Below are positions 35,393-40,293 of a DNA stretch of 64,000 bases, one piece after another. The notes below the pieces were generated by a model. The model saw only the letters and a program-made list of their open reading frames with translations. It searched no databases and was not told the origin of the DNA. Every line of letters starts with the position of its first letter. The first letter of the stretch is position 1. Origin of the DNA: Candidatus Amoebophilus asiaticus 5a2 (GTDB lineage Bacteria > Bacteroidota > Bacteroidia > Cytophagales > Amoebophilaceae). Position numbers and translations under genes: made by a program. The stretch is taken from the NCBI RefSeq assembly GCF_000020565.1, contig NC_010830.1, forward strand, positions 1,716,001 to 1,780,000, written 5' to 3'.

Positions 35393-35599
35393 CTATCCTA
35401 ATCTTTTAAAGGTATTTTTTTAGTTAATAACTCAGCTATTGCTGTATGGCCTTTATATTTAGCTACCTGTAATGGAGTTAAACCTTGGTTGTTTTTATCA
35501 TTTACCTTAGTTTCCTCCTTTCCTAGTAGCAACTTAACGACTTTTATATGGTTATTCATAGCAGCCCAATGTAATGGTAAATAGTCATTCTTATCCTTA

Positions 35600-36490
35600 G
35601 AGTCTGTTCATAATCTTTGTAGGCATATTCTTAGAAAAGCAAGCACCACCATTTGTAAGCTTGTAGTTAATCTTCTCTCACAGTTTTTCCATAGGCGTCG
35701 GCATTTTTCCAGCCAGCCAAAACTTCGCTCCACTATCCATCGCTTAGGTATTACCTTAAATCGATGCAATTCGCTCCTTTTAGCTACTTCTACTTCCGCT
35801 CCCTGAAGGACTTCTTTTACTTGGTTGGCAAACACTTCTCCACTATAGCCTCCATCTACGAGCACCTTCTTTACCTTAGCTAATTGCTCTTTGTGATCTT
35901 TAAGCATAGTTACTGCTCCATCTCTATTTGTTTCACTAGCCCGTGTAACATATATCCCATGCGGTAAGCCTTGGCTGTCTACGGCTATGTGGCGCTTGAT
36001 CCCGTTTATCTTTTTAGCTCCATCATAGCCTTTCTCTTTGGCTGTATCTGTATTCTTTATGCTTTGCGCATCTACTATAATCAGGCTCGTTTGGGCTGCT
36101 TTACCTGCTTGCTTCCTCAGACGAGCAACCATATTTTTTTAATGCTTCTTCTAGAAAGCTTATGCCATTTTCTTGCTTTTCACTCCATATCTGAAAATAA
36201 GCATGTACCGTACGCCATTTAGGAAAATCTTTAGGCAACATTCTCCATTGGCAGCCTGTCTTGAGCAGATACAGTAATCCAGAGAATACCTCATATAAAT
36301 CTACCTGGCGAGGTTTAGTCTTTTTTCGGGCTGCTTCCAAAATAGGGCGTATAACTTCAAATTGTTCTCTATTAATATTAGTAGAATACTCTTGAGTCAT
36401 AGATAAGTCCCTTTTTTATCAAGTTATTGACTAGTTTCCTCTCTAATCTAATAAATATTAACTTAATGAACAAAGATCTTGAACAGGCTC
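35600..36490 (-). mobile_element. IS5-family element inside the ankyrin gene
   Basis: The element is about 891 bp with ends GAGTCTGTTCA and GAGCCTGTTCA (one mismatch) in inverted orientation. The flanks are CTTA and CTAA when read on the minus strand, compatible with a YTAR target duplication that has mutated. It carries the transposase frames at 35608-36132 and 36101-36400 and is inserted into the 3' part of the ankyrin gene. Confidence 0.82.
35608..36400 (-). CDS. IS5 family transposase in two overlapping frames
   Basis: Frame one (36400-36101) encodes the DUF4096-like start with INREQFEVIRPILEA, VFSGLLYLLKTGCQWRMLP and DFPKWRTVHAYF. Frame two (36132-35608) encodes the DDE domain with IIVDAQSIKNTD, GYDGAKKINGIKRHIAVD, VDGGYSGE and WIVERSFGWLEKCRRLWKN, including all three acidic positions. 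The frames overlap by 32 bp and meet at a run of seven A (36134-36140). Six A would fuse them as EALKN-MVARLRK. Either one base was gained in the run, or the protein is made by slippage there. Apart from that join the transposase looks complete. Confidence 0.85.
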
Positions 36491-36948
36491 TAAGAATTTA
36501 CATTAGCTCCGTTCTCTAGTAACACCTTAACCACTTCTACTTGTCCCTTGAACGCAGCCCAATGGAGCGAAGAATAACCATCTTTATCTTTAGCTTCTAT
36601 ATCAGCTCTATTTTTTAATAACAGATCAACAACATCTAGATAACCCTTCAGCGCAGCCCAATGGAGCGAAGAATAACCATCTTTATCTTTAGCTTCTATA
36701 TCAGCTCTATTTTTTAATAACAGATCAACAACATTTAAACGACCATTTTGAGCAGCCCAATGGAGCGGAGAATTACCATTGTTGTCTTTATCATTTATAT
36801 CAGATCCTTTTTGTAGTAACAGATCAACAACATTTAAACGGCCATTTTGTGCAGCCCAATGGAGTAGAGAATAACCATTCTTATCTTTGTCATTTATATT
36901 AGCTCCTTCTTGTAATAACAGATCAACAACCTCTAGATGGCCCTTCAA
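36490..36948 (-). pseudogene. Ankyrin-repeat fragment (3' part)
   Basis: This open frame holds about 4.5 ankyrin repeats of 33 residues with the consensus DGYSSLHWAAxxGxxxVVDLL, ending NGANVNS where the IS5-family element begins. The frame is open upstream of its first Met back to about 37008, reading ADIEAKDKYDASSLHLAALK. Adjacent repeats are nearly identical at DNA level (for example 36568-36660 and 36661-36730), a sign of recent repeat amplification. Ankyrin repeats mediate protein-protein contact and are typical of host-directed proteins in intracellular bacteria. Confidence 0.85.
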
Positions 36949-36992
36949 AGCAGCTAAATGCAGAGAAGATGCATCATATTTATCTTTAGCTT

Positions 36993-38000: not shown

Positions 38001-38038
38001 TTCCCCTAACTTATATTGTGATTCTTGGTGACCTCTTA

Positions 38039-38909
38039 GAGGCTGTCTAAAAAGGGTAATTTAGATAGGAAAAGCAGACAAAACTTTATAAAATTAGTTA
38101 GTGAACTTTAAACTAACAGCTATGCCATACACTAGCGATTTAACAGATAAGGAATGGGAAGTGTTAGAACCATTAGTTACTTACATAGGTCCTTGCCGAC
38201 CCCGTAAATACACTATAAGAGAAGTATTAGATGCTATTTTCTATTTAGAAAAAACAGGCTGTCAATGGCGCATGCTACCTGCCCATTTTCCACCCTGAAA
38301 AAGTGTTTATGACTTGTATTATCGCTGGCGAAGAAATGGTAAATGGGACTTAGTCCATGATACACTTCGAGATCAAGTACGAGAAAAGTTGGGCAAACAA
38401 GCCATACCTAGCGCTGCCATTATGGATAGCCGCTCGGTTAAAACAGCACAAAAAGGGGGTCGAGAGGCTATGATGCAGCAAAAAAAGTAAAAGGCCGTAA
38501 GCAGCATATTATTGTTGATACGCTGGGGCTTATACTTTGTGTGGTAGTACATTCAGCTCACTTATCAGACTCAAGAGGATGTCATCTTTTGCTTATTCGC
38601 CTTTTTAATACATTCCCTTCTATTAAACACATATGGGTAGATGGAGGATACCAGAAAGGATGTATAATGTGGGCTTATGGGGTGCTAGGTTATACTTTAG
38701 AAGTTGTACAACGGCTCTCAAATGGGTTTCATATTCTAAAAAAGCGATGGATAGTCGAGCGTACATTTGCTTGGCTGAGTTTTTCTAGGAGGCTCTCTAA
38801 AGATTACGAGCATAATCCCAAGTCTTCTGAAACACATATTAAAATTGTTATGATTAGAATCATGCTTAAGCGGCTTTTATGACTCCATTTTGGCTTTTTA
38901 GACAGCCTC
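38039..38909 (+). mobile_element. IS5-type element, copy 2, inside the Sel1/ankyrin gene
   Basis: The length (871 bp), inverted repeats GAGGCTGTCTAAAAA and sequence are the same as in 17494-18364. TTA flanks both ends. Removing the element and one TTA restores the host gene frame exactly. It lies antisense to the interrupted gene. Confidence 0.92.
38101..38882 (+). pseudogene. IS5 family transposase with stop and frameshift (copy 2)
   Basis: It is identical to the copy at 17556-18337. The likely start is ATG 38122, a TGA replaces Trp after HFPP at 38296-38298, and the frame breaks at the five-G run 38455-38459. The DDE-domain end WIVERTFAWL is intact. Sharing both lesions means this copy descends from an already defective element or that both are expressed by recoding. 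Confidence 0.88.
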
Positions 38910-40293
38910 TTATAGCAGCAATTGAATAATAGTTGAATGCAGTTACAAAATGCTCCGACACTTCCTGCTTTTCATATATTTTTCCTAATTTGTAATATGC
39001 ATTTATATCTCCTTGCTCAGCAGCTTTTTGATGCTTTTTTATGGCTTTTAATGGTAACCTTTTTTTACGTATTGGTGAGGTTTGCACAGTTTGATTCTTC
39101 TCTTTTCTATCTCTTAAATGTTGTATTGCTATTGCTAGTGCGTCTATACGATCATCATGTGTGGGTTTACTAAAACCTTGAGAGGTGAATTGAGCACCTT
39201 TTGCACCTATTGTTAGTAATTGGTAAAAAAAGCTGCAATTTAAATCTCCTACTTCTGGTTGTGATATTCTCTGAAAATCTTCTTGGAGAATCTTTAGGTC
39301 AATAATAAGCTTATGTGAGTTTAGTAAAGGTTCGAGAGTAGAGATAATCCTAGTTATTTTACCTTCACCCTTTTGAGTATCTGTGTTATTGCTATTTTGG
39401 TTAATTGCAAGTAATACCTTTACTTGTTTTGAAGTATCTTCTTCCTCTTCTTCTCCTTTTTCATCTTTTATATTCGAACTTTTAGATCGCTTTTTTTGTT
39501 TTTCTAGCTTTATTACCTCTATATTATATTTATTAAGTTCATCTTTTACAGGTTTCCCAAAATAACAGCCAGCACCATTTCTTTCATAAACGATGTAGAG
39601 CACATCCTTATGTCTTCTAATAATTGATCCTACTTGTTCTATTATTTTATCTTCGCTATCCTTTACTATGCTTCCTAATTCAACGATAAAATAATACTCG
39701 CCGCTTCGTTTGGCTACACAATAAGCTATCTCATCTGCTTCAAGCCCAGGTCCAGCAACATCAATAGCAATGACCCCCTTATCATCATACTTTTTAACAT
39801 TAGGTAGCGTAAAGATTGGTGCGAAAATATGACTTGCTTTACCATTTCTTGTAGAAATACCTCCCCATTCTATCGTGGTCGGTACGTGGGTAGCATCTAG
39901 CTCCATAACGATTAGGTCAGATAATTTTAATGGTGCTTCAGTTGCATCGGCTTTTTGTATAAACTCTGTAAAATTCAAAAATTTATTTTCCCTGCTTGTT
40001 TTACCCCAGCTATTTGCAGCTCGGTTGATAGCATCTTTATACCACTTCATTGCTTCCTGATGTGGGTTGCTGTACTGTCCTGTATTTCTAGAGCTAATAA
40101 GTTTTTGCTGTGCTTCTAAATGACCTGCTTCAGCAGCTCTTTTGTAACATGCAATTGCTTTACTAAAATTACTTTCCTTCTCATTAGCTAGCGCAGGATC
40201 TTCACTTAATCTTTCATGTTTTTCTCCCGTTAGGTTAGTAGGAGCAATAAAAAGGTTTAAAATATTATTATTGTTGTAGCTAAATTTATCCAT
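38866..40293 (-). CDS. Sel1 repeat protein with T7-type terminase nuclease domain (5' fragment)
   Basis: Of 475 residues the last 15 come from the inserted IS5. Residues 43-66 (FSKAIACYKRAAEAGHLEAQ) and 76-95 are Sel1-like helices. Residues about 118-400 match the end of phage T7-type large terminase: linker APLKLSDLIV, then the RNase H-like nuclease with IAIDVAGPG (Asp178), YIVYERNGAGCYFG (Glu237), TRIISTLEPLLNSHKLIID and HDDRIDALAIAI (Asp381, Asp384). The terminase ATPase is absent. A lysine/glutamate insert (266-290) interrupts the nuclease. Residues 417-460 are further Sel1-like repeats. All three acidic positions are kept, so the fragment could still be a metal-dependent nuclease. Its use in a repeat protein, rather than in DNA packaging, is inferred. 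Confidence 0.75.
   Translation of the reverse strand: MDKFSYNNNNILNLFIAPTNLTGEKHERLSEDPALANEKESNFSKAIACYKRAAEAGHLEAQQKLISSRNTGQYSNPHQEAMKWYKDAINRAANSWGKTSRENKFLNFTEFIQKADATEAPLKLSDLIVMELDATHVPTTIEWGGISTRNGKASHIFAPIFTLPNVKKYDDKGVIAIDVAGPGLEADEIAYCVAKRSGEYYFIVELGSIVKDSEDKIIEQVGSIIRRHKDVLYIVYERNGAGCYFGKPVKDELNKYNIEVIKLEKQKKRSKSSNIKDEKGEEEEEDTSKQVKVLLAINQNSNNTDTQKGEGKITRIISTLEPLLNSHKLIIDLKILQEDFQRISQPEVGDLNCSFFYQLLTIGAKGAQFTSQGFSKPTHDDRIDALAIAIQHLRDRKEKNQTVQTSPIRKKRLPLKAIKKHQKAAEQGDINAYYKLGKIYEKQEVSEHFVTAFNYYSIAAIRGCLKSQNGVIKAA

What the first reader, a model, noticed from the sequence alone, without database searches (positions are those of the whole stretch)
35398..40293. A phage terminase nuclease built into a Sel1/ankyrin repeat protein, later broken by three elements
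Seen: residues 118-400 of the 5' fragment carry the order of T7-type large-terminase C-terminal motifs (APLKLSDL, IDVAGPG, YERNGAG, RIISTLEPLLNSHKLIID, HDDRIDALA), with Sel1-like repeats on both sides. Removing the IS5 and the MITE joins this in frame to more Sel1 and then ankyrin repeats. The ATPase domain is absent. Known: phage terminases package DNA and do not carry Sel1 or ankyrin repeats, which are typical of host-interaction proteins. Inference: a DNA-packaging nuclease was recruited into a host-directed or anti-invader protein. I know of no described family with this layout.
Basis: partly seen in the sequence, partly recalled or inferred. Interest (0 to 1): 0.85.

Follow-up and report, generated by a model that had tools for sequence, protein, structure and literature searches.

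The report
Phage packaging nuclease inside symbiont effectors
A bacterium that lives inside amoebae (it matches Amoebophilus asiaticus) carries a family of large exported repeat proteins into which the DNA-cutting half of a phage T7-type packaging motor has been built; the copy in this window is a broken pseudogene, but intact copies with the DNA-cutting residues kept survive elsewhere in the genome and in a sister species.

Summary
The core of the finding is real. Residues ~113-390 of ORF 38866-40293(-) are the nuclease half of a T7-type large terminase (NF033889 E 3e-31, profile 268-500 of 500 only; PF22530 E 3e-15; AlphaFold model matches PhiV-1 TerL, E 4e-16). No ATPase half was found in the genome. 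The window copy is not unique: its genome (1,884,364 bp) has eight copies, six of them intact ORFs of 1134-1792 aa, and 'Ca. Amoebophilus sp. 36-38' has six. All 12 aligned copies keep the acidic active-site residues and form one clade (100/100) apart from 48 phage-type TerLs. The nuclease is the best-conserved segment (dN/dS 0.2-0.36). Intact copies share a plan: lipoprotein signal, Amoebophilus 'APD'-like domain, sometimes an OTU- or Ulp1-like domain, Sel1 repeats, nuclease, more Sel1. Most likely these are surface or exported host-directed effectors with a captured DNA endonuclease; the nuclease is well supported, the host target is inferred. I found no published description.

The parts
41564..42310 (-). 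True N-terminal fragment of the broken gene: lipoprotein-type signal peptide (LLIVYLLESC) and APD-like domain
   Evidence: Only significant window hit of the APD-region profile built from 7 intact paralogs, E 2.1e-5; phmmer match to paralog G N-fragment
40250..41540 (+). IS110-family insertion (transposase ORF 40512-41540) separating the N-terminal fragment from the nuclease fragment; approximate ends
   Evidence: Repeated copies in own genome cover window 40330-41520, one copy 40250-41518; transposase ORF
38866..40293 (-). 475-aa ORF: Sel1-like segment, terminase nuclease, Sel1/TPR-like segment; its first codons are probably element-derived
39076..39939 (-). T7-type large-terminase nuclease (RNase H-like) domain, protein residues 119-406; acidic residues D178, D187, E188, E237, D380, D381, D384
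38039..38909 (+). IS5-family insertion, ISCaa9 type (3-ORF transposase); approximate ends
   Evidence: 14 further near-identical copies in own genome, ends; family and length fit ISCaa9 in PMC3196728
37344..38000 (-). Fragment with one Sel1 repeat followed directly by ankyrin repeats
   Evidence: Pfam Sel1 2.4e-6, Ank_2 1.1e-47
37201..37398 (.). Short inverted-repeat (MITE-like) insertion with ~20-bp terminal inverted repeats GACCCGCTGCGAAACA
36993..37259 (-). Ankyrin fragment
   Evidence: Ank_4 2.8e-18
36490..36948 (-). Ankyrin fragment, out of frame with the preceding one
   Evidence: Ank_2 3.1e-57
35600..36490 (-). IS5-family insertion, ISCaa8 type; approximate ends
   Evidence: 5 further near-identical copies in own genome, ends
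35398..35559 (-). Last ankyrin fragment, C-terminal end of the broken gene
   Evidence: Ank_2 2.8e-7

Best explanation
An Amoebophilus ancestor captured the C-terminal nuclease half of a T7-type phage large terminase, without its ATPase, into a Sel1-repeat lipoprotein of the Amoebophilus effector type, and the fusion then multiplied into a paralogous family (eight copies here, six in a sister species). The working proteins are Sec-exported lipoproteins, anchored on or released from the symbiont in the amoeba cytosol. The Sel1 solenoids on either side bind a host partner and place the RNase H-type nuclease, which should cut DNA with two metal ions (triad D178/E237/D381-D384 in window numbering). 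Some members add an OTU- or Ulp1-like protease. The window copy is a dead relic, cut by four mobile elements. Shown by sequence: capture, fold, single origin, export signal, conserved active-site residues, purifying selection, decay of this copy. Inferred: DNA cleavage, surface location, host target.
For: TerL nuclease half only; fold matches TerL PhiV-1, T4 gp17, RB49, Sf6 and HCMV nuclease domains; phage hits are T7-type TerL / DNA maturase B, 33% over 252 aa, E ~1e-26. Eight copies in own genome, six intact and six in 'Ca. Amoebophilus sp. 36-38'. Acidic residues invariant in 12 of 12. One clade, 100/100. dN/dS 0.20-0.36 in the nuclease, the lowest part of the gene in each of five pairs. 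T4 gp17 triad D401/E458/D542, and the split-off nuclease half keeps nuclease function (PMC3012670). Lipobox motifs; APD prodomain effectors of A. asiaticus with OTU and Ulp1-like domains, proposed to act on the host (PMC3482391). Model of an intact member: solenoid - alpha/beta nuclease - solenoid. F-box/LRR lipoprotein genes adjacent.
Against: No assay of activity, export or localisation exists. APD assignment is by my own profile and resemblance to the text of PMC3482391, whose alignments I could not read. OTU and C48 matches are below Pfam cut-offs. A lipid anchor would keep the nuclease away from host nuclear DNA unless it is released or injected. dS is near or above 1 in several pairs, so dN/dS values are rough.
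Confidence: 0.55

Rival explanations
1. Nutritional nuclease: surface-anchored lipoproteins cut nucleic acid in the host cytosol so that the symbiont can take up nucleotides; the Sel1 repeats are scaffolds only.
For: Lipoprotein signals, intact active-site residues, multi-copy family under purifying selection. Limited nucleotide synthesis in this lineage is my recollection, not tested.
Against: Sel1 arrays, OTU/Ulp1-like modules and F-box neighbours point to host-protein targets; the sequence diversity outside the nuclease (28-61% identity upstream) suits interaction surfaces better than a scavenging enzyme.
Confidence: 0.17
2. Anti-invader nuclease: the family destroys DNA of phages, plasmids or co-infecting microbes, using a phage-derived nuclease.
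For: Origin from a phage packaging enzyme.
Against: No PADLOC hit; lipoprotein signal; genus-restricted; Sel1 and OTU/Ulp1-like modules fit a eukaryotic target better.
Confidence: 0.08
3. Non-catalytic use: the RNase H fold now serves only as a nucleic-acid or protein binding module.
For: Fold retained while sequence diverges (end branches up to 1.7); paralog F has YDDR for HDDR.
Against: All acidic residues are invariant in 12 copies, which a pure binding module would not need.
Confidence: 0.15
4. Ordinary phage debris: a prophage terminase fell next to a repeat gene by chance.
For: Mobile elements abound at the locus.
Against: Same fusion in intact single ORFs in two species, one clade, no phage ATPase found in the genome.
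Confidence: 0.02

Closest known systems
T7-type large terminase (gp19 / DNA maturase B; NF033889, PF22530)
   Same: C-terminal nuclease domain over its whole length, including the linker (SDLIVM...WGG), D-E-HDDR motifs and RNase H-like fold
   Different: No ATPase half; embedded between Sel1 solenoids in exported lipoproteins of 1100-1800 aa; not in a phage gene cluster
Amoebophilus APD1/APD2 effectors (Zhang et al. 2012, PMC3482391)
   Same: Lipobox plus conserved N-terminal domain, Sel1/TPR repeats, OTU and Ulp1-like modules, host-directed by proposal
   Different: That paper lists OTU, lipase, EDA39C, F-box, U-box, Ulp1, UBCH, GIMAP, STAND, SecA-like and SbcC-like domains; the passages I could search name no terminase nuclease in this class
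Tox-REase-8 ankyrin proteins of Wolbachia and Amoebophilus (PMC3482391)
   Same: Predicted nuclease joined to repeats in an endosymbiont
   Different: Restriction-endonuclease fold, ankyrin repeats; here RNase H-like terminase fold with Sel1 repeats
Bacterial Sel1-repeat effectors of intracellular bacteria
   Same: Sel1 solenoids in host-interaction proteins
   Different: No terminase nuclease reported in the papers found

Membership tests
T7-type terminase nuclease domain | Match to the nuclease half of TerL over its length | tested here: met
   NF033889 positions 268-500 of 500, E 3e-31; PF22530 1-108 of 108
T7-type terminase nuclease domain | Conserved acidic active-site residues | tested here: met
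   D60, D69, E70, E119, D262, D263, D266 of the domain invariant with phage TerLs
T7-type terminase nuclease domain | RNase H-like fold | tested here: met
   Foldseek to 8dgc E 4e-16, RB49 and T4 gp17 E ~3e-5 to 5e-5; the modelling alignment contained TerLs
Functional large terminase (packaging motor) | N-terminal ATPase with Walker A | tested here: not met
   phrog_38 hits in own genome cover only 528-744 of 760
Functional large terminase (packaging motor) | Phage structural genes alongside | tested here: inconclusive
   PF12236 portal gave no hit but its control did not ring either; the neighbours listed include no recognisable phage structural gene
APD-type Amoebophilus effector | Signal peptide with lipobox | tested here: met
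   LxxC motifs read in paralogs and in ORF 41564-42310; no signal-peptide predictor was run
APD-type Amoebophilus effector | Shared APD1 or APD2 N-terminal domain as published | not testable with these tools
   The published alignment is in a supplement I could not read; a shared N-terminal domain among paralogs is shown
APD-type Amoebophilus effector | Delivery to or action on the host | not testable with these tools
   needs experiment
Sel1-repeat proteins | Multiple Sel1 repeats above cut-off | tested here: met
   PF08238 up to 194 bits, up to 7 stretches, in paralogs; single-copy scores below cut-off in the window fragments
Ankyrin-terminase fusion | Ankyrin repeats in the same protein as the nuclease | tested here: not met
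   No ankyrin in intact copies; only fragments next to the broken copy
Anti-phage defence system | Match to a PADLOC model | tested here: not met

The most novel reading that the evidence does not exclude
A phage genome-packaging nuclease has been turned into an exported endonuclease effector used by an intracellular symbiont on its amoeba host's nucleic acid, with protease modules added in some paralogs: the first terminase exapted for host manipulation.
Probability: 0.4. Interest if true: 0.85.

Novelty: new variant of a known kind. Interest (0 to 1): 0.68.

Why it matters
It shows that the nuclease half of a tailed-phage packaging motor can be detached, fused to protein-binding repeats and export signals, and kept under selection as a multi-copy family in a genus of intracellular symbionts. 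It adds a catalytic domain to the known set of host-directed modules and gives a direct test of whether symbionts use viral DNA-processing enzymes on their hosts.

Tried and rejected
Chance motif match: rejected. Complete prophage terminase: rejected, no ATPase part found in the genome. Wide distribution: among genomes sampled, 391 of the order, 396 of the phylum and 21 of the family, only the two Amoebophilus carry the domain (one weak 54-residue hit elsewhere). 71 related ORFs from genome and viral contigs are 480-717 aa, the size of ordinary TerLs; most show the simple Walker pattern I searched for. Target duplications of the IS5 elements: the 3-bp flanks of other copies often disagree, so the matching TTA flanks of the window copy do not prove a simple insertion. 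G000:C1:606026 hit: a different protein, methyltransferase-like by eye. PF12236 portal search: uninformative, control silent. Transcription: PMC8831229 reports many regulated TPR/SEL1 genes but I could not map these loci to its locus tags.

Full report
Where it is. The window is G000:C1:1716001-1780000 of a single 1,884,364-bp contig. That length, the IS content and the close relation to 'Ca. Amoebophilus sp. 36-38' point to 'Ca. Amoebophilus asiaticus' 5a2, an obligate symbiont of Acanthamoeba; the length as a species match rests on my memory and on the 1.88 Mbp in PMC3196728.

Observation. ORF 38866-40293(-) encodes 475 aa. Residues 177-329 match PF22530 (T7 terminase RNase H-like domain) at E 2.9e-15, above the curated cut-off. 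NCBIfam's T7 terminase model matches residues 113-390 at E 3e-31, but only positions 268-500 of 500, i.e. the nuclease half. phrog_38, a TerL family, agrees. Solved TerL chains 8dgc and 4bij are found by sequence. An AlphaFold model of residues 119-406 (mean pLDDT 76, core above 90) has the TerL of phage PhiV-1 as best PDB match (E 4e-16), followed by T4 gp17, RB49 gp17, Sf6 and the HCMV terminase nuclease; the modelling alignment contained phage TerLs, so this is not fully independent of the sequence evidence.

Active site. In window numbering D178, D187, E188, E237, D380, D381 and D384 are invariant in 12 family members and in the phage TerLs aligned with them. In T4 gp17 the triad is D401, E458, D542, and gp17 split at the linker keeps ATPase and nuclease functions in the separate halves (PMC3012670). 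That D178, E237 and one of D381/D384 are the equivalents is inferred from motif order and fold.

The window copy is not alone. The genome holds eight copies of the domain. Six lie in intact ORFs of 1134, 1281, 1481, 1170, 1792 and 1663 aa; one is frameshifted (370 + 952 aa); the eighth is the window copy. 'Ca. Amoebophilus sp. 36-38' (MKUM01) has six: two complete (stop-to-stop frames of 1712 and 1397 codons), two running off contig ends, two frameshifted. Intact members share a plan: lipoprotein-type signal, an N-terminal domain common to the family, a charged low-complexity stretch, Sel1 repeats, nuclease, and usually several more Sel1 repeats. Some add an OTU-like (GDCFFDALAQC...HF.P) or Ulp1/C48-like segment, both below Pfam cut-offs. 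Intact ORFs show no ankyrin repeats. A model of a 715-residue part of one intact member shows helical solenoid, alpha/beta nuclease, helical solenoid.

Origin. tblastn against phages gives T7-type TerL / 'DNA maturase B' at ~33% identity across the domain. In a tree with 48 TerLs the 12 Amoebophilus domains form one clade with 100/100 support, consistent with a single capture and later duplication; relations within the clade are mostly unresolved and the window copy has a long branch. The phrog_38 search finds only the nuclease part (positions 528-744 of 760) in the genome. No other genome among the 391 of the order or 21 of the family examined carries the domain; in the phylum sample one other genome gave a weak 54-residue hit. 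Seventy-one relatives from other genomes and viral contigs are ORFs of 480-717 aa, as expected of ordinary TerLs.

Constraint. Nei-Gojobori dN/dS in the nuclease is 0.20-0.36 across five pairs and lower than upstream and downstream parts in each pair. The closest pair, the 1481-aa protein and its counterpart on contig 5 of the sister species, keeps 85% identity in the nuclease against 61% upstream and 75% downstream. dS is near or above 1 in several of the other pairs, so those values are rough.

Anatomy of the broken copy. A profile of the shared N-terminal region, made from seven intact paralogs, has one significant hit in the window: ORF 41567-42325(-), E 2e-5, next 0.21. It lies directly upstream on the same strand, has a lipobox, and is separated from the nuclease ORF by an IS110-family element (transposase 40512-41540; other copies in the genome delimit it to roughly 40250/40330-41520). 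The start codon at 40293 and the first codons after it are probably element-derived. Further along come an IS5 element of the ISCaa9 type (38039-38909), a ~180-bp inverted-repeat element, a frame break near 37,000 and an IS5 element of the ISCaa8 type (35600-36490). Fragments were compared one by one; flanks were not joined, because this looks like an effector gene. That the ankyrin part belonged to the same protein is likely, since Sel1 runs directly into ankyrin in ORF 37344-38000 and both sides of the ISCaa9-type insertion end in Sel1-like sequence, but no intact relative shows it.

Mechanism. Zhang et al. (PMC3482391) described Amoebophilus effectors with a lipobox and the lineage-specific domains APD1 or APD2, carrying Sel1/TPR repeats and OTU or Ulp1-like domains, probably surface-anchored and aimed at the host. 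The present family fits that description and adds a domain those passages do not mention. F-box and/or LRR lipoprotein genes stand directly beside several copies in both species. The best reading is therefore an exported, host-directed protein whose Sel1 solenoids bind a partner and whose captured RNase H-type nuclease cuts nucleic acid, most likely DNA. Capture, fold, conservation and export signal rest on sequence evidence; cleavage, location and target are inferred. The window copy itself is dead.

Known or new. Literature searches for terminase with Amoebophilus or Sel1 found no description of this architecture; only open-access papers were searchable.

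Noticed in passing
L010:8633-11913, L032:2409-4184 and 11513-15244, L009:2879-4399, L035:3732-4364: F-box and/or LRR lipoprotein genes lie directly beside several terminase-nuclease genes in both species, suggesting effector islands.
   Followed up: partly
L013:7347-7949 and L032:6791-7393: OTU-like segment (GDCFFDALAQC...HF.P), 42% identical between the two species, below the Pfam cut-off.
   Followed up: partly
L011:4895-5752 and L035:537-1394: Ulp1/C48-like segment, 73% identical between the two species, close to but below the Pfam cut-off.
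   Followed up: partly
L013:15266-19178, L033:76-2381, L036:6410-10338: Three further family members are frameshifted (one in 5a2, two in 36-38), so decay of copies is common.
   Followed up: no
window 38039-38909: ISCaa9-type element with an in-frame UGA (CCCTGAAAA) of the kind proposed in PMC3196728 to be read through.
   Followed up: no
window 34574-34744: Short ORF with a lipoprotein-type signal peptide, a possible remnant of another exported protein.
   Followed up: no
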